This document shows, one piece after another, positions 4,524 to 11,552 of a stretch of 11,552 nt of DNA. The notes under the pieces are model-generated. The model saw only the letters and a list, made by a program, of their open reading frames with translations, was not told the origin of the DNA and did not search any database. This DNA comes from an uncultured Bacteroidota bacterium. GTDB taxonomy: Bacteria > Bacteroidota > Bacteroidia > Chitinophagales > Chitinophagaceae. Position 1 is the stretch's first letter. Every line of letters starts with the position of its first letter. The DNA lies in the NCBI GenBank assembly GCA_946479535.1, contig CAMLGP010000031.1, positions 1-11,552 on the forward strand. The letters are read 5' to 3'. The position numbers and the translations under genes are program-made.

Positions 4524-5756
4524 ATGAAGTCGTTTGACGTTCCCATTATTTACAGAAGTCCCCTCATCACCGCCATCAAAAAGAAGAGAAAGGAATGGGA
4601 TAAACTGAAAAAAGACTTTACCCCCACCCTTCTTGATTTTGGTCCACTTCACATTTATCTCGCCAGGCATTTTGGTTTTTGCTATGGTGTTGAAAATGCC
4701 ATTGAAATAGCGTTCCGTACGATAGAAGAAAATCCCGGCAAAAGAATATTCCTGTTAAGTGAAATGATCCACAACCCACAGGTTAATGCAGACCTGCAGG
4801 CTCATGGTGTAACTTTTTTGCAGGATACTTATGGCAAACAGCTCATTCCATTTGAGGAATTGAAGGTGGATGATGTTGTATTGATCCCGGCATTTGGGAC
4901 TACCCTGGCTATTGAAGAGAAATTAAATAATATTGGTATTCCCACGGAAAAATATAATACTACGTGCCCCTTTGTTGAAAAAGTATGGAACAGAAGTGAG
5001 CAGATTGGGCAGAAAAATTACAGCGTGGTGATCCATGGGAAGCCCAATCATGAAGAAACAAGGGCCACTTTCTCCCATGCAGCAAAAAATACTCCTTCCG
5101 TAGTTGTAAAGGATATGCAGCAGACAGTAGAACTGGCAAAGTATATTACCGGAGAAAAAAAAGCTGAACAGTTTTACGAAGATTTCAAAGGGCAATATTC
5201 AGAAGGGTTTGATATTAACAAAGACCTTGAACGTATTGGTGTAGTTAATCAAACCACTATGCTTGCCAGCGATACACAGGCGATCGCTGATTATCTTAAG
5301 AAAGTAATGATTGATAGGTATCAGTTGACCCCTGCCAGTACCAGTGAAAGATTTGCAGATACGCGTGATACGCTTTGTTATGCAACTAATGATAACCAGA
5401 CAGCGGTAACGGGAATGCTGGGCACAGATGCAGATCTGGCCATTGTAGTAGGCGGATACAATTCATCCAACACCTCTCACCTGGTGGAATTATGCGAAGA
5501 GAAACTGCCGACCTATTTTATCAATAATGAAGAGAAAATTATCTCTGAAAAAGCGATCCTTGCTTATAATTTTCACACTCACCAGGAACATTTGACCCCA
5601 GATTTCCTTCCCAAAAAGCAACCCGTAAAAGTCCTAATTACAAGCGGTGCATCCTGTCCTGATGCAATTGTGGAATCAGTCATTACAAAACTGGTGAGTT
5701 TCTATCAAAATGGTAAAACGATAGATAAAATGACGGAGTCCTTTTTACATTTGTGA
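4524..5756 (+). CDS. ispH: 4-hydroxy-3-methylbut-2-enyl diphosphate reductase, long Bacteroidota form
   Basis: IspH (LytB) carries out the last step of the MEP pathway, the reductive dehydration of HMBPP to IPP and DMAPP on a [4Fe-4S] cluster. The three cluster cysteines are Cys53 (HFGFCYGVENAIE), Cys148 (NTTCPFVEKVW) and Cys285 (DTLCYATNDNQ). Substrate-binding landmarks are His83 (SEMIHNPQV), His176 and Glu178 (PNHEET), Thr244/Thr245 (VNQTTML), SSNTSHL (314-320) and SGASCPD (374-380). At 410 residues it exceeds the E. coli enzyme (316): about 40 extra residues precede the first cysteine, a charged insert lies around 195-235, and a short tail follows. The ATG at 4524 is fixed by the promoter element 5 bases upstream. 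Its 3' end overlaps the convergent membrane-protein gene by 12 bases. Confidence 0.96.
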   Translation: MKSFDVPIIYRSPLITAIKKKRKEWDKLKKDFTPTLLDFGPLHIYLARHFGFCYGVENAIEIAFRTIEENPGKRIFLLSEMIHNPQVNADLQAHGVTFLQDTYGKQLIPFEELKVDDVVLIPAFGTTLAIEEKLNNIGIPTEKYNTTCPFVEKVWNRSEQIGQKNYSVVIHGKPNHEETRATFSHAAKNTPSVVVKDMQQTVELAKYITGEKKAEQFYEDFKGQYSEGFDINKDLERIGVVNQTTMLASDTQAIADYLKKVMIDRYQLTPASTSERFADTRDTLCYATNDNQTAVTGMLGTDADLAIVVGGYNSSNTSHLVELCEEKLPTYFINNEEKIISEKAILAYNFHTHQEHLTPDFLPKKQPVKVLITSGASCPDAIVESVITKLVSFYQNGKTIDKMTESFLHL

Positions 5757-6167
5757 CTGAACAAAAAAGATCAGAAGAGTCATAAGATTCAGAATGGCCA
5801 CCACCAGCAGGAATCGTATATTGCTATATAAGTGTTTAAATGACTGATTGAACTGAGTTTCATTAACATCTGCAATACCTTTTCTCAAATAAATAATAAA
5901 TGTCCAGTATTTAATTATTGCAAAAATATTGAGGACCATTATGCTTATTGTAAAAATATCTGTAGTGATAATTCTAGTGTTATAAAAAGCATATGGACCC
6001 GAGGAGAATCTGATTATTCGATATATTGTGGCAATTATTGACAGAGCCGAACTAAGGATGGCGATTATAAGGGTGCCTCCCGCGATTTTGGCCGTTTTTA
6101 TAATATAATTTCGACCATCCTCTGTTAGTTTGATCTCAAATAAATCTTCCTGTTTTTCAGGTTCCAT
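5745..6167 (-). CDS. Small integral membrane protein, DUF5362-like
   Basis: Function unknown. The 140-residue product has a charged soluble N-terminus (about 1-25, with the segment LTEDGRNYIIKTAK) and three hydrophobic segments near 30-48, 70-93 and 117-136. Between the last two lies an amphipathic stretch (about 94-115: RKGIADVNETQFNQSFKHLY). This layout resembles the DUF5362 proteins of Bacteroidota as I remember them, but that is recollection, not a search. It starts 11 bases after the stop of the phosphorylase-like gene, so the two are probably cotranscribed. No Shine-Dalgarno sequence is present. Its last codons interlock with those of ispH on the other strand. Confidence 0.75.
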   Translation of the reverse strand: MEPEKQEDLFEIKLTEDGRNYIIKTAKIAGGTLIIAILSSALSIIATIYRIIRFSSGPYAFYNTRIITTDIFTISIMVLNIFAIIKYWTFIIYLRKGIADVNETQFNQSFKHLYSNIRFLLVVAILNLMTLLIFFVQSQM

Positions 6168-6178
6168 AAATGTTCTAA

Positions 6179-7834
6179 CTATTTATAGAGAAGCGTATAA
6201 TACTCATGCGCCATTCTATTGCTCTCAAACTGGAAGCGAACGTCCTGCATGCTGTTCTTCATTACCTGCCGCCAGGTAGCATAATTCTCATAATAGAGAG
6301 GGAGTATCTCTTTTTCCAGTATCTCATAAAGGCAATTCAGGTCATACATATCCTGATCGTGCACAGACATATTTGCATAATCTGCTTTGGGAACAACAAA
6401 TCCGTTATGTCCATGATTGATGAATTCAGGTATCCAGCCGTCATCAGTAGAAAAATTAATAGCGCCATTCATGGCTGCGGTCATCCCGCTGGTTCCAGAC
6501 GCTTCACGAGGTACGCGTGGATTATTGAGCCAGCAATCTGCAGCCTGTTTCAATCTTTTGGACAGTGTAAGTTCGTATCCGATCACTACTGCCACATTTT
6601 TATAGCGCTTGCTTAAATGCACCAGTTCATTGAATTCACTGATAGCCGGATGGTCAACAGGATACGGTTTACCCGCCCAGATGATCTGAACAGGATATTT
6701 TTTGTTAGTAAGAAGTTTTTCAAATCTCTTTTCATCAGAAGCAATAAGACCTGCTCTTTTATATCCTGCAAATCTGCGTGCCCAGACAATTGTAAATATA
6801 TCCGGGTTGTACAACTTGCCTGTTTGATCGGCTACAATTTCAAATGCCCTGCGTTTCAGGTATTTTTTTCGATCATCAATTCCATAATCATCAACTGCCT
6901 CTTTAAAACGGTATAACTGTTTATCTGCCCAATAGGTATAGTTCTGGGCATTTGTAATGGATATGATCGGGCAGATGCCGTCATATTTTGCCCACATTGC
7001 CCTGGCCACTCTACCGTGTAATTGCGAAACACCATTGGCAATATGTGCAAAACGCAAAGCCACCAGTGAGTGATTGAATGCATCATCCTGGATGCCGGTC
7101 AGTTTCTTAACCTCATCAACACTTAGTCCGCAGAAATAACTCATTTTATGGCAGAGGTAGATATCATGCTTTTCATTCCCTGCTTCTTCCGGAGTATGAG
7201 TGGTAAACACCAGTCTTTTCCTGACTTCTTCCGGCTTGCGGTTGAATTTATTATAGAGGTAGAATGCTGCAGGTAATCCATGTGCTTCATTCAAATGATA
7301 GAGTTCAGGATTAAAACCGATTATATCCAGCAGTTTGGCACCACCCACACCCAGCAAAATAAACTGCGCCACCTTGGTAGCCACATTGGCATCATAAAGA
7401 CGATGGGTAATGGTTTGTGACACATAATCATTCTCAGGCACATCTGTGCTGAGCAGGAAAAGCGGTGCAGATTTAAATGTTTGAGGATTGAGGTAATAGA
7501 CCTTTACCCAAACCGGATGCTCATGTACGTTGATCTGATAACGGATTCCGGTATCTTCCAGGAATCCATATTGTTTTTCATTCCAGGTGACTTCCAGTGT
7601 CTGGTCCTGGTTTCTTTCCTGATCATAATATCCATATTTCCAGAGAATGCCGATAGACACCATGTTCTGTCCAAGTTCATAAGCACTGCGCAAATGAGAA
7701 CCGGCAAGAAAGCCAAGACCACCGCTGTATATTTTCAGGGGCTGGTGGATGGCAAATTCCATCGAGAAATAAGCTACGCGTTTGGAATAATTGGGATCAA
7801 TAGTGTACGGGACCTGATAATTCGTAAAACTCAT
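6179..7834 (-). CDS. GT35-like alpha-glucan phosphorylase family protein lacking the PLP lysine
   Basis: By homology a glycogen/starch phosphorylase relative (phosphorolysis of alpha-1,4-glucan to glucose-1-phosphate, cytosolic). Landmarks in 551 residues: RVAYFSMEFAI (19-29), YSGGLGFLAGSHLRSAYELG (36-55), HLNEAHGLPAAF (180-191), FTTHTPEEAGNE (210-221), NGVSQLHG (267-274), and the donor-phosphate-binding region TIVWARRFAGYKRAGL (348-363). At EASGTSGM (444-451), where phosphorylases continue with the lysine that binds pyridoxal phosphate, this protein has Thr452 (codon ACC, 6479-6481), followed by AAMNGAINFSTDDGW. Length is that of a compact catalytic core; classical phosphorylases are about 800 or more. 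There is no frameshift. Loss of the PLP lysine makes ordinary phosphorolysis doubtful; it could be a divergent clade with another donor. The start matches the conserved N-terminus. It follows the lipoprotein gene by 74 bases and precedes a small membrane-protein gene. Confidence 0.88.
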   Translation of the reverse strand: MSFTNYQVPYTIDPNYSKRVAYFSMEFAIHQPLKIYSGGLGFLAGSHLRSAYELGQNMVSIGILWKYGYYDQERNQDQTLEVTWNEKQYGFLEDTGIRYQINVHEHPVWVKVYYLNPQTFKSAPLFLLSTDVPENDYVSQTITHRLYDANVATKVAQFILLGVGGAKLLDIIGFNPELYHLNEAHGLPAAFYLYNKFNRKPEEVRKRLVFTTHTPEEAGNEKHDIYLCHKMSYFCGLSVDEVKKLTGIQDDAFNHSLVALRFAHIANGVSQLHGRVARAMWAKYDGICPIISITNAQNYTYWADKQLYRFKEAVDDYGIDDRKKYLKRRAFEIVADQTGKLYNPDIFTIVWARRFAGYKRAGLIASDEKRFEKLLTNKKYPVQIIWAGKPYPVDHPAISEFNELVHLSKRYKNVAVVIGYELTLSKRLKQAADCWLNNPRVPREASGTSGMTAAMNGAINFSTDDGWIPEFINHGHNGFVVPKADYANMSVHDQDMYDLNCLYEILEKEILPLYYENYATWRQVMKNSMQDVRFQFESNRMAHEYYTLLYK

Positions 7835-7908: not shown

Positions 7909-8886
7909 TTATTTTTTCTTTGCCTTCATCACCGCTTTAGGTTTGGCTTCCTTCTTTCTGGGATAAGAGCCATTAAAAGAACAGCGCAAACCCCTGCGTG
8001 CACCGCAGCCACCAACTTCTTTTATAGTGACGGAGGAAGAAGAAAAATTGAACTGGAGCCCACAAGGATCACCCGCTTCATGATATTCAGCCATGGTATT
8101 TGTAACCATACGCGCCACGCCTTTCAGTTCTCCTATGCACTCGCCTTTATTCTTTTCAAAATGTATAAAGAATCGCATGCGATCGGCTTTTCTTCCATCG
8201 CGGAAGGACACCAGGTTCATTGCACCACTGCCATAATCAGCTGTAAACTTCTGTTTGTGGGAAAATGTATCGATCGGATTGATCAGTTCAGTTACCTTAT
8301 CTTCCAGAGATTCCGTAAGGATCAGGGTAAAACCTGCATCATTGTTGAGTACATACTGATCGCTTCCATCACTGGTGCTCCCGTCTTTGTTCCTGCGGGT
8401 AACTTTGCTTGACAGTACAAAGCGGGTATCAATGTCGGCAGTTTGTGTAGTAGCGGAAGAATTATCTGGCTGCAGGATGGGAATACCATCAATAAATTCA
8501 TCATCCTTGTTAAAGCCAAGTGCAAAAACCGCTTGTTTATCTCCACTTGTAACCTTTGCGAAGAGATAGGTCTCTTTTGTTTTGGCGGCCTTGATCCTGG
8601 CCATAGGATATATTTTTAGCTTGGCGTTTTTAGGAAACGCGCGTGTTATTATGGAGTCAGGAACAAATTGGGAAAATACTTTATGGCTGATCAGCAGTGA
8701 ATCATTGTTTTTTTTCGTCAGTGAAGTGTCAGCAAAACGATAAGGCAGTTTGACTTGCGGAAAAAAATCAAGGAAATCAGCCACTTCTACCGGGTCCTCT
8801 CCGGAAAGAGAGACTTTTTTTGATTTACAGGCGAAGACGGCCAGTGCTGTGATAATGACCAAACAGTACGTCCTAAAAACCCTCAT
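7909..8886 (-). CDS. Putative lipoprotein of unknown function
   Basis: I do not recognise this family. The 325-residue product has a signal peptide ending in a lipobox: MRVFRTYCLVIITALAVFAC, with Cys20 the predicted lipidated residue. The residues after it are KSKK, without the acidic run that marks surface export in many Bacteroidota, so a periplasm-facing location is the simplest inference. The middle is polar and beta-rich in appearance, with a low-complexity Ser/Thr/Asp stretch near 140-175 (DNSSATTQTADI; DGSTSDGSD). Near the C-terminus is a cysteine cluster, GGCGARRGLRCSF, plus Cys in GDPCGLQF, possibly disulfides or metal ligands. The last 16 residues are strongly Lys-rich (RKKEAKPKAVMKAKKK). 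It diverges from mntR and is followed on its strand by the phosphorylase-like gene. Confidence 0.8.
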   Translation of the reverse strand: MRVFRTYCLVIITALAVFACKSKKVSLSGEDPVEVADFLDFFPQVKLPYRFADTSLTKKNNDSLLISHKVFSQFVPDSIITRAFPKNAKLKIYPMARIKAAKTKETYLFAKVTSGDKQAVFALGFNKDDEFIDGIPILQPDNSSATTQTADIDTRFVLSSKVTRRNKDGSTSDGSDQYVLNNDAGFTLILTESLEDKVTELINPIDTFSHKQKFTADYGSGAMNLVSFRDGRKADRMRFFIHFEKNKGECIGELKGVARMVTNTMAEYHEAGDPCGLQFNFSSSSVTIKEVGGCGARRGLRCSFNGSYPRKKEAKPKAVMKAKKK

Positions 8887-9029: not shown

Positions 9030-9692
9030 GTGCTGAACTACTCTACCAGTGAAGAGAATTATATCAAAGCGATCTTCCACCTGCAGAAGGATGGAACAGT
9101 AACCACCAATGAGCTTTCGGCTGAATTGCAAACAAGGCCGGCATCGGTGACTGATATGATGAAAAAATTAAAGACGAAAAAACTGGTGCATTACAAGGCA
9201 TACAAAGGGTTCAGACTAACAGCTGAAGGCAGCCGTGTAGCTCTTCTAATTATCCGGCGTCACCGACTTTGGGAATTTTTCCTGGCTGAGAAATTAAAAT
9301 TCAATTGGGATGAAGTACACGAAGTAGCAGAGGACCTTGAACATGTAAGCAGCAAAAAACTGATTGATAAACTGGATGAATTCCTGGATTTTCCAAGATT
9401 TGATCCTCATGGTGATCCTATTCCTGACAGCAATGGCAAAATTGAGAGCACAAAACAGGTTTGCCTTACCGATGTTCCCATCAATAAACTTACTGTTGTA
9501 GGTCATGTAAGTGATCAATCAAGCGAAATGCTTGAATTATTAGGACATAAAAAAATTGGGATTGGTACGCGACTGGAAGTAATAAAGAAATTCAGTTTTG
9601 ACCTATCCATGGAAATTAAGGTGAAACAACAGCCACCTACCCATATCAGTTGGGACCTGGCGAAAAACATATTTGTGAAGTATGAGAATTGA
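9030..9692 (+). CDS. mntR: MntR/DtxR-family metal-dependent transcriptional regulator
   Basis: Metal-dependent repressor of manganese (possibly iron) uptake. In 220 residues: winged helix-turn-helix about 4-65 (ENYIKAIFHL; recognition helix RPASVTDMMKKLK), dimerisation and metal-binding domain about 66-140, and C-terminal SH3/FeoA-like domain about 145-218. Ligand candidates by alignment to DtxR are His78, Glu82 and His97 (one site) and Glu101, Glu104 and His105 (VAEDLEH, the other). Glu101 replaces the DtxR cysteine (Cys102), as in manganese-specific MntR. Asn10 takes the place of the N-terminal ligand (Met10 in DtxR, Asp8 in B. subtilis MntR), a variation to note. Start is GTG at 9030, since an in-frame TAG at 9003-9005 rules out a longer form. 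Its last 11 bases overlap the start of the transporter gene. Confidence 0.92.
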   Translation: MLNYSTSEENYIKAIFHLQKDGTVTTNELSAELQTRPASVTDMMKKLKTKKLVHYKAYKGFRLTAEGSRVALLIIRRHRLWEFFLAEKLKFNWDEVHEVAEDLEHVSSKKLIDKLDEFLDFPRFDPHGDPIPDSNGKIESTKQVCLTDVPINKLTVVGHVSDQSSEMLELLGHKKIGIGTRLEVIKKFSFDLSMEIKVKQQPPTHISWDLAKNIFVKYEN

Positions 9693-11552
9693 TACACACG
9701 CAGACATTTCCCTGAGCGAGGTACACGAGAGCATCGATACCACCACCCATCACCGTTCTTTGTGGAGGCGAATACTGGCTTTCTTTGGTCCCGCCTACCT
9801 GGTAAGTGTGGGTTATATGGATCCAGGAAACTGGGCTACAGATCTTGCAGGAGGTAGCAAATTTGGCTATTCATTGATCTGGGTTTTGTTAATGAGCAAC
9901 CTGATGGCTTTATTGCTACAAAGTCTTTCAGCAAGGTTGGGAATTGTAAGAAGAAGAGACCTTGCCCAGGCTAACCGGGAAACCTATCCACGCAGTATCA
10001 ATTTTGTTTTATATGTGCTGGCAGAAATAGCTATTGCAGCCTGCGACCTTGCAGAAGTTTTGGGAATGGCGATCGGTATTCAATTGTTGACAGGATTGCC
10101 ATTGATCTGGGGCGTGTTGATCACAGTACTTGATACTTTCCTGCTGTTATTGCTGCAAAGACTGGGAATGCGAAAAATGGAAGTATTCATAATTGGATTG
10201 GTATTTATCATTGGCATGTCTTTTCTGGTTGAAATTATTTTGGCAAAGCCGGAAATGGGAGAAGTGATAAAAGGTTTTGTTCCCAATATTCCCGGGAAGG
10301 AAGCGCTTTATATCGCAATAGGAATTATTGGTGCCACTGTAATGCCCCATAATCTTTACCTGCACTCAGCACTGGTACAAACAAGAAAGATCAAACGCAC
10401 CAAAGAAGGAATAAAACGTGCATTGAAACTGAATTTTATTGATACAACTGTTGCCTTAAATCTTGCATTTCTGGTAAATGCTGCCATTCTTGTACTCGCA
10501 GCTGCTGTATTTTTTAAAACCGGAAGAAATGATATTGCCGATATAAAAGATGCCCACCACCTGTTAGATAAATTGTTGGGAACAAGCCTGGCTCCCATTC
10601 TGTTTGCTGTGGCATTAATTGCTGCCGGACAAAGCTCAACAGTAACCGGAACACTGGCTGGTCAGATTGTGATGGAAGGATACCTGCGGCTTCGCATTAA
10701 TCCCTGGATGAGAAGATTGCTCACCCGGCTTATCGCCATCATTCCGGCAGTAATTGTGATATTGATAAATGGAGAAGACAATATCGAGAGCCTTCTTATA
10801 TTAAGCCAGGTTATATTGAGTCTTCAGTTGGGATTTGCAATCATTCCACTAATACATTTCGTGAGTGATAAAAAAACTATGGGGATTTTTGCGATAAAAC
10901 TTCTGGTACAGATTCTTGCATGGCTAATCACTGCTGTACTGGTATATCTAAATCTGAGAATGGTGAGTGAGCAGGCGGCAGATTATTTTAAGAGCTCCCA
11001 TAATATATTCTGGAAAATTGTGATCATTGCAGGTGGTATCGGTTATGTGCTTTTGCTTATCGTTTCTGTCCTCTACCCTCTTATTAAGAGAAAATGGAAA
11101 AATGTGTTGGTACAAATGCATCCGGAAGCAACTGCCTTACAAACACTTACTACACCCAGCTATTCTTCGGTGGCTGTGGCGCTCGATTTCAGTGAAAATG
11201 ATCAAAAATTACTATCGCATGCACTGGGACAGGGAAGCAATTCTTCAAAATTTATTCTGCTTCATGTGGTAGAGAGCGTGCCTGCACGTATTTATGAATA
11301 TGAAAGTGATGACCTGGAAACGGAAAAAGATAAAGAGCACCTGCACTCCTATGCACAACAATTACGGGAAAGAGGATTTGATGTAGAAGCAAAAGTAGGT
11401 TTTGGCAGCAGGGCAAAAGAAATTGTTCGATTGGTAAAAGAATCTGGAGCAGATATGCTGGTTATCGGAGCGCATGGTCATAGCGGGATAAAAGATTTCT
11501 TCTATGGGGAAACGATCAACACCGTGAGACATGAATTGAAAATACCGGTATT
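9682..11552 (+). CDS. mntH: NRAMP manganese/divalent metal transporter fused to a C-terminal UspA domain (3' end off window)
   Basis: Proton-coupled Mn(II)/Fe(II) importer of the inner membrane. The open frame starts at the ATG at 9682, overlaps mntR by 11 bases and stays open to the edge: 623 full codons plus two bases. TM1 carries the metal-binding motif DPGN (Asp47-Asn50, in VSVGYMDPGNWATDLAGG) and TM6 carries MPH (Met221-His223, in GATVMPHNLYLHS), both diagnostic and intact. Repeated hydrophobic helices run to about residue 470. After a linker (about 470-492), SSVAVALDFSEND (495-507) begins a universal stress protein domain that ends with the nucleotide-loop pattern GAHG-N9-GE (Gly596, Gly599, Gly609), where Glu610 replaces the usual Ser/Thr. 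The domain is nearly complete at IPV, so only a few residues should be missing. Cytoplasmic sensing of ATP or stress by this tail is inference. Confidence 0.95.
   Translation, partial: MRIDTHADISLSEVHESIDTTTHHRSLWRRILAFFGPAYLVSVGYMDPGNWATDLAGGSKFGYSLIWVLLMSNLMALLLQSLSARLGIVRRRDLAQANRETYPRSINFVLYVLAEIAIAACDLAEVLGMAIGIQLLTGLPLIWGVLITVLDTFLLLLLQRLGMRKMEVFIIGLVFIIGMSFLVEIILAKPEMGEVIKGFVPNIPGKEALYIAIGIIGATVMPHNLYLHSALVQTRKIKRTKEGIKRALKLNFIDTTVALNLAFLVNAAILVLAAAVFFKTGRNDIADIKDAHHLLDKLLGTSLAPILFAVALIAAGQSSTVTGTLAGQIVMEGYLRLRINPWMRRLLTRLIAIIPAVIVILINGEDNIESLLILSQVILSLQLGFAIIPLIHFVSDKKTMGIFAIKLLVQILAWLITAVLVYLNLRMVSEQAADYFKSSHNIFWKIVIIAGGIGYVLLLIVSVLYPLIKRKWKNVLVQMHPEATALQTLTTPSYSSVAVALDFSENDQKLLSHALGQGSNSSKFILLHVVESVPARIYEYESDDLETEKDKEHLHSYAQQLRERGFDVEAKVGFGSRAKEIVRLVKESGADMLVIGAHGHSGIKDFFYGETINTVRHELKIPV

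What the first reader, a model, noticed from the sequence alone, without database searches (positions are those of the whole stretch)
6460..6510. Glucan phosphorylase-like protein has threonine where the PLP lysine should be
The motif reads EASGTSGM-T-AAMNG; in GT35 phosphorylases the residue after GxM is the lysine that forms the Schiff base with pyridoxal phosphate (Lys680 in the muscle enzyme). Codon 452 is ACC and the frame is intact around it. The donor-phosphate-binding RRFAGYKR motif and HTPEEAGNE remain. A PLP-less protein with the rest of the site conserved may use a nucleotide sugar, act as a glucan-binding regulator, or use another chemistry. I suspect the substitution is shared by a Bacteroidota clade, which would make it an adapted enzyme rather than a dead one.
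Basis: partly seen in the sequence, partly recalled or inferred. Interest (0 to 1): 0.75.

Follow-up and report, generated by a model that had tools for sequence, protein, structure and literature searches.

The report
Glucan phosphorylase with a swapped lysine
A large group of Bacteroidota glucan phosphorylases has lost the lysine that holds vitamin B6 in the known enzymes and always carries a new lysine elsewhere, so this textbook enzyme may hold its cofactor differently, or work without it, in these bacteria.

Summary
Residue 452 of the 551-aa ORF (6179-7834, minus) is Thr (ACC, 6479-6481) where PLP-bearing glucan phosphorylases have Lys. It is neither an error nor a decayed gene: 470 of 470 non-redundant short relatives lack Lys there (T 359, A 80, S 24, V 6, G 1), while 35 of 35 long Bacteroidota relatives have it. 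H213, N295, R354, K359, E444 and T448 are invariant in both groups. The form occurs in 19 of 148 sampled Bacteroidota genomes, and in 0 of those 19 was another phosphorylase homologue found. In a few genomes it sits beside phosphoketolase, acetate kinase or type II GAPDH, as some lysine-bearing relatives do. Best reading: a working alpha-glucan phosphorylase whose PLP lysine moved to K429 on the preceding helix. A PLP-free phosphorylase or a nucleotide-sugar enzyme is not excluded. Ten searches of an open-licence library showed nothing on it. New variant of a known kind, directly testable.

The parts
6179..7834 (-). Alpha-glucan phosphorylase-like protein without the PLP lysine, 551 aa
   Evidence: TIGR02094 431 bits against cut-off 191.7; PF00343 50 bits against 27; AF2 model pLDDT 92.4
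6479..6481 (-). Codon 452, ACC, Thr in place of the PLP Schiff-base Lys
   Evidence: column is Lys in 47 of 47 PLP-type relatives and never Lys in 470 short forms
6548..6550 (-). Codon 429, Lys, new invariant lysine of the short family
   Evidence: K in 470 of 470 short, V 31 I 3 T 1 in 35 long, I 11 M 1 in 12 canonical
6572..6574 (-). Codon 421, Glu, new invariant residue next to Y420
   Evidence: E in 470 of 470 short, N 26 D 9 in 35 long
6482..6505 (-). EASGTSGM, residues 444-451, sugar- and phosphate-binding loop and helix start
   Evidence: E444 and T448 470 of 470 short and 35 of 35 long; roles by homology
6755..6778 (-). RRFAGYKR, residues 353-360, donor-phosphate site
   Evidence: R354 and K359 invariant in short and long; role by homology
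7172..7198 (-). HTPEEAGNE, residues 213-221, glucose-side loop
   Evidence: H213 470 of 470 short and 35 of 35 long; role by homology
7712..7723 (-). GGLG, residues 38-41, N-domain active-site loop
   Evidence: Invariant in A1 and conserved in all three groups; role by homology

Best explanation
The protein is an active alpha-1,4-glucan phosphorylase (alpha-glucan + Pi to glucose 1-phosphate) of a Bacteroidota subfamily in which the PLP-holding lysine has moved. Position 452, on the helix that starts at T448, became a small residue, and a new lysine, K429, on the preceding helix 422-431 reaches into the same pocket and binds PLP (Schiff base). The PLP phosphate still sits on G447/T448, R353/R354 and K359 and does the same acid-base work with Pi as in ordinary phosphorylases. 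Shown: loss of K452, gain of K429, invariance of the other catalytic residues, the predicted fold, and that no other phosphorylase homologue was found in the sampled genomes. Inferred: that K429 points into the PLP pocket, that PLP is bound, and the activity.
For: Reciprocal lysines: K429 470 of 470 with non-Lys at 452 in short forms; non-Lys at 429 with K452 35 of 35 in long forms, 12 of 12 canonical and 9 of 9 relatives read from plasmids of other phyla. K429 takes a position that is V, I or T (one L, one M) in the lysine forms, so probably a buried one. K429 and residue 452 lie on consecutive helices of the C-terminal Rossmann domain, and K429 is 81 degrees clockwise from the buried face, the flank expected to face the next helix (inference). 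Other pocket residues are as in the lysine-bearing long forms: Y420 469 of 470, N437 and W302 470 of 470. Sole homologue: 0 of 19 short-form genomes has another TIGR02094 or TIGR02093 match. Shared gene company with lysine-bearing relatives: phosphoketolase and acetate kinase (L232), phosphoketolase (L213), type II GAPDH (L252), compared with L254, L255, L257.
Against: The K429-to-pocket distance was not measured (no coordinates). The helix wheel of 448-457 is weak (0.69) and taken alone turns residue 452 away from helix 422-431. K429 is the only lysine at 100% that is new, but K34 (432 of 470) and K87 (458 of 470) are also absent from the long forms (and from the canonical ones), K34 being Arg in 27 of 35 long. 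E421 is new and invariant too, so an E421-K429 ion pair that fills an empty pocket is possible. No PLP content or activity data exist. In the separate ten-genome set one genome (G003) has both types. Neighbour evidence rests on a few loci.
Confidence: 0.45

Rival explanations
1. PLP-free phosphorylase: the family has dropped PLP. K429 and E421 fill or charge the vacated pocket, and Pi alone does the chemistry on R354/K359, as in GT4 trehalose phosphorylases.
For: K452 is replaced by T, A, S, V or G, with no common chemistry; E421 and K429 change together. Retaining GT4 phosphorylases exist, with phosphate itself as proton donor (PMC8950772, passages; that they lack PLP is recalled). Same sole-homologue and neighbour evidence as for the best explanation.
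Against: The residues that bind the PLP phosphate and line the ring in PLP enzymes stay conserved, which needs another reason if PLP is gone.
Confidence: 0.27
2. Nucleotide-sugar enzyme: an NDP-glucose-dependent alpha-glucan synthase or transferase that uses the PLP pocket for a nucleotide.
Confidence: 0.15
3. PLP is still used but held non-covalently, with no Schiff base; K429 is structural.
For: It is the PLP phosphate, not the aldehyde, that does the chemistry in phosphorylases (PMC11046441, passages); the phosphate site is conserved.
Against: Leaves the perfect reciprocal gain of K429 unexplained.
Confidence: 0.07
4. Glucan-binding regulator or inactive protein.
For: Loss of a residue held to be essential; 5 of 10 Chitinophagaceae genomes carry a second short paralogue with S or A.
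Against: The other catalytic residues are invariant over a clade with members down to about 50% identity; no other phosphorylase homologue was found in these genomes to regulate.
Confidence: 0.06

Closest known systems
TIGR02094 alpha-glucan family phosphorylase, long Bacteroidota type (Segatella copri glycogen phosphorylase, 9l6i)
   Different: Has K452 and V at position 429, and longer chains (852 aa)
Canonical GT35 glycogen and maltodextrin phosphorylase (TIGR02093)
   Same: GT-B fold, EASGT loop, R-R...YKR phosphate site
   Different: PLP lysine present in 12 of 12 read; I or M at 429; below the TIGR02093 cut-off here (37 against 553 bits)
GT5 starch and glycogen synthase (GlgA, SSIV)
   Different: ADP-glucose enzyme; no usable sequence alignment (a flawed test)
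GT4 trehalose phosphorylase
   Same: Retaining GT-family phosphorylase (PMC8950772, passages)
   Different: Different family and substrate; used only as a mechanistic precedent, no sequence compared
WNK kinases (recalled)
   Same: An essential catalytic lysine supplied from another position
   Different: Unrelated fold and chemistry; an analogy only

Membership tests
GT35 alpha-glucan phosphorylase | Sequence homology over the family model | tested here: met
   PF00343 50 bits against 27; TIGR02094 431 against 191.7
GT35 alpha-glucan phosphorylase | GT-B fold of the phosphorylase type | tested here: met
GT35 alpha-glucan phosphorylase | PLP Schiff-base lysine in the EASGT..MK motif | tested here: not met
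   Thr452 here; Lys in 0 of 470 short relatives
GT35 alpha-glucan phosphorylase | Residues of the phosphate and glucose sites | tested here: met
   R354, K359, E444, T448, N295, H213 470 of 470 short and 35 of 35 long
GT35 alpha-glucan phosphorylase | PLP content and phosphorolysis of alpha-1,4-glucan | not testable with these tools
   Needs purified protein
Canonical TIGR02093 phosphorylase | Score over the curated cut-off | tested here: not met
   37.3 bits against 552.9
GT5 glycogen synthase | Score over the curated cut-off of TIGR02095 | tested here: not met
   36.4 bits against 328.45
GT4 trehalose phosphorylase | Sequence homology and activity | not tested
   Considered only as a mechanistic precedent

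The most novel reading that the evidence does not exclude
The subfamily is a naturally PLP-free member of the GT35 line that still breaks down (or builds) glycogen, with Pi or a nucleotide doing what PLP does elsewhere: a living test of the idea that PLP was added to, and can be removed from, a GT-B glycosyltransferase.
Probability: 0.4. Interest if true: 0.88.

Novelty: new variant of a known kind. Interest (0 to 1): 0.7.

Why it matters
The PLP lysine is treated as a defining feature of glycogen phosphorylase. Here 470 non-redundant homologues lack it, many of them named glycogen or starch phosphorylase by their sources, and they are the only phosphorylase homologues found in 19 of 19 sampled genomes that carry them (9 of 10 in a second, overlapping set). 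If PLP hangs on K429, this is a natural relocation of a cofactor-anchoring residue from one helix to its neighbour. If PLP is gone, phosphorolysis of glucan does not need it, which bears on how GT35 arose from nucleotide-sugar enzymes. One protein preparation and one mutant set would decide.

Tried and rejected
Sequencing error or private mutation: rejected (120 of 120 and 80 of 80 close relatives agree). Shortness (551 aa) as the cause of the lysine loss: rejected, because lysine-bearing relatives of 564-576 aa exist (L254, L255, L257, L260). Gene neighbourhood as a general clue: weak. I scanned 30 neighbour proteins chosen by hand in 18 of the 33 short-form loci L200-L232; most were unrelated, and none was a GT5 synthase or a glgC family protein. 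Relatives of the window's GH13 gene lie near the short form in L212, L227 and L232 and in 26 of 80 loci (many of those loci are truncated); not followed further. Pyridoxamine-oxidase-type genes (PF12900) beside three short forms (L200, L204; L253): taken as an FMN split-barrel family and not as PLP supply (recalled), so given no weight. A profile comparison with GlgA gave no usable alignment, but 3 of the 10 sequences in that GlgA set, the template among them, were antisense frames (found), so it is no negative. Hydrophobic moment of helix 448-457: too weak to orient residue 452. Two phage-collection records with a homologue (H33, H34): unannotated faecal contigs, not read. Literature: no paper on a GT35 protein without the PLP lysine was seen in the listings; the library holds open-licence papers only, so subscription work could exist. 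Other phyla were seen only through 9 of 32 plasmid records, so the K429 form outside Bacteroidota is not excluded.

Full report
OBSERVATION. The window encodes on the minus strand a 551-aa protein at 6179-7834. Its motif is EASGTSGM-T-AAMNG and codon 452 is ACC at 6479-6481. It scores 431 bits to TIGR02094 (alpha-glucan family phosphorylase, cut-off 191.7) and only 37 bits to canonical TIGR02093; Pfam gives PF00343 at 50 bits against a cut-off of 27. The nearest solved protein, Segatella copri glycogen phosphorylase (9l6i), has Lys at this column. No whole genome is held for the window.

HOW FAR THE SUBSTITUTION REACHES. The 120 listed best homologues (of 8000 scored) all have Thr, as do 80 of 80 loci from genome contigs, mostly labelled Chitinophagaceae, Chitinophagales or Bacteroidetes (a few labels such as Comamonas or Williamsia are probably binning errors). 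Two further searches, from a Flavobacteriaceae-type protein with Ser and from a Niastella paralogue with Ala, listed 120 each: T 112 and S 8, and A 79, T 22, S 11, V 6, G 1 with one not matched by the motif expression; tallies. After removal of duplicates, and with the loci added, 505 proteins remain: 470 short (<650 aa) with T 359, A 80, S 24, V 6, G 1 and K 0, and 35 long with K 35. The 470 were mostly found by similarity and are not a census. In an even sample of 295 Bacteroidia genomes an exact pattern (blind to Lys) found 29 sites in 26 genomes, 27 Thr and 2 Ser. Five of ten Chitinophagaceae genomes carry a second short paralogue, with Ser or Ala.

THE RECIPROCAL LYSINE. In a comparison of 152 short, 35 long and 12 canonical sequences, one lysine is fixed in the short family and absent from both other groups: K429, 23 residues before T452. 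Over all 470 short forms it is K in 470, and over the 35 long ones V 31, I 3, T 1; canonical forms have I 11, M 1. Two other lysines are nearly fixed and new: K34 (432 of 470; Arg in 27 of 35 long) and K87 (458 of 470). Relatives read from plasmid records of other phyla behave the same way: 9 of 9 lysine forms have K452 and I, V, T or L at 429, and 2 of 2 Bacteroidota short forms (Pontibacter, Runella) have T452 and K429. I fetched 12 of 32 matching records; one of them, L261, was not picked up by the motif expression and is not counted. E421 is likewise new and fixed (470 of 470; N 26 and D 9 in long). H213, N295, R354, K359, E444 and T448 are 470 of 470, and so are W302 and N437; Y420 is 469 of 470.

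NICHE. In an even sample of 148 Bacteroidota genomes, 127 have a TIGR02094 match and 19 of these carry the short form. None of the 19 has any other TIGR02094 match at E 0.001, and a TIGR02093 search hits only the short-form genes themselves. The other 108 genomes have other types; over the session 35 long and 12 canonical proteins were read, not all. In the overlapping ten-genome Chitinophagaceae set one genome (G003) holds both forms. So the short form almost always stands alone. Of the 19, 14 have a strong glgC match (over 400 bits; 12 over cut-off), 13 a GT5 glgA over cut-off (11 of 17, plus G001 and G009) and 3 a GT3 synthase. G128 has glgC but no glgA over cut-off, and G086 and G121 have neither glgC nor a synthase over cut-off. 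Genome completeness is not told, so single absences are soft. Gene neighbours vary. In L232 the T form is followed on the same strand by phosphoketolase and acetate kinase, in L213 it follows phosphoketolase and a BON protein, and in Pontibacter it is near type II GAPDH. Lysine forms in two Alphaproteobacteria sit with type II GAPDH and, in one, phosphoglucomutase, and in Criblamydia with phosphoketolase and a cation ATPase. I scanned 30 hand-picked neighbour proteins in 18 of 33 loci, so no frequency can be given.

EVOLUTION. A FastTree tree (columns 429 and 452 masked, 543 columns, 121 sequences) puts all 65 short forms in one group on a long stem (1.06, support 1.0), next to 44 lysine-bearing TIGR02094 sequences (support 0.82) and 12 canonical ones (support 1.0; supports from the unrooted tree; one search printed 0.154 for the short clade after rerooting, a shifted label). 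With Lys in both other groups, loss of K452 and gain of K429 on the stem is the simplest reading. A root on the short stem would turn this round, and I cannot exclude it.

MECHANISM. I think most likely that the enzyme is a glucan phosphorylase that holds PLP through K429 (0.45). A PLP-free phosphorylase is the main rival (0.27), then a nucleotide-sugar enzyme (0.15), non-covalent PLP (0.07) and a dead or regulatory protein (0.06). A lysine fixed at a position that is V or I in the other forms, so probably buried, is natural if it forms a Schiff base, but an E421-K429 ion pair that fills an emptied pocket would also do.

KNOWN AND NEW. By homology and fold it belongs to the GT35 line, but the PLP lysine, a defining feature, was tested and is not met. 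It is filed as a new variant of a known kind. Reviews say that glycogen and maltodextrin phosphorylases carry covalent PLP and suggest that GT35 came from an NDP-sugar enzyme (PMC11046441; [quoted passage not shown] passages). I also saw passages of PMC11465516. Ten literature searches (listings) showed nothing on a GT35 subfamily without this lysine.

Noticed in passing
window 7909-8886 (-): Putative lipoprotein of 325 aa (lipobox-like start) directly upstream on the same strand, found beside the short form in 75 of 80 loci with no Pfam match up to E 0.1; a conserved neighbour of unknown role.
   Followed up: partly
window 9030-9692 (+) and 9682-11550 (+): DtxR/MntR-type metal regulator overlapping the start of a large membrane-protein ORF that reads like an Nramp transporter with a Usp-like tail and runs off the window (the Nramp and Usp reading is by eye and by analogy to L220).
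   Followed up: no
window 5745-6167 (-): 140-aa membrane-protein-like ORF that overlaps the end of ispH; no Pfam match and no blastp hit at 1e-10 among ORFs of 80 related loci.
   Followed up: no
L088, L092, L093, L094, L096: Second short paralogue with Ser or Ala at 452 in 5 of 10 Chitinophagaceae genomes; in two of them (L200, L204) next to Pyridox_ox_2 genes, in one also a BON gene.
   Followed up: partly
G086, G121, G128: Short form present but no GT5 or GT3 glycogen synthase over cut-off, and no strong glgC in the first two: either other glucans are used or synthesis differs.
   Followed up: no
20yr_A: An R583A mutant of the Segatella copri enzyme has been solved; by my reading of the alignment R583 falls on helix position 426, three residues from position 429. 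No paper on it was seen.
   Followed up: no
L067, L077, P0025: Chitinophagaceae-type genes filed under Williamsia, Comamonas and Citrobacter freundii names, probably mislabelled metagenome bins.
   Followed up: no
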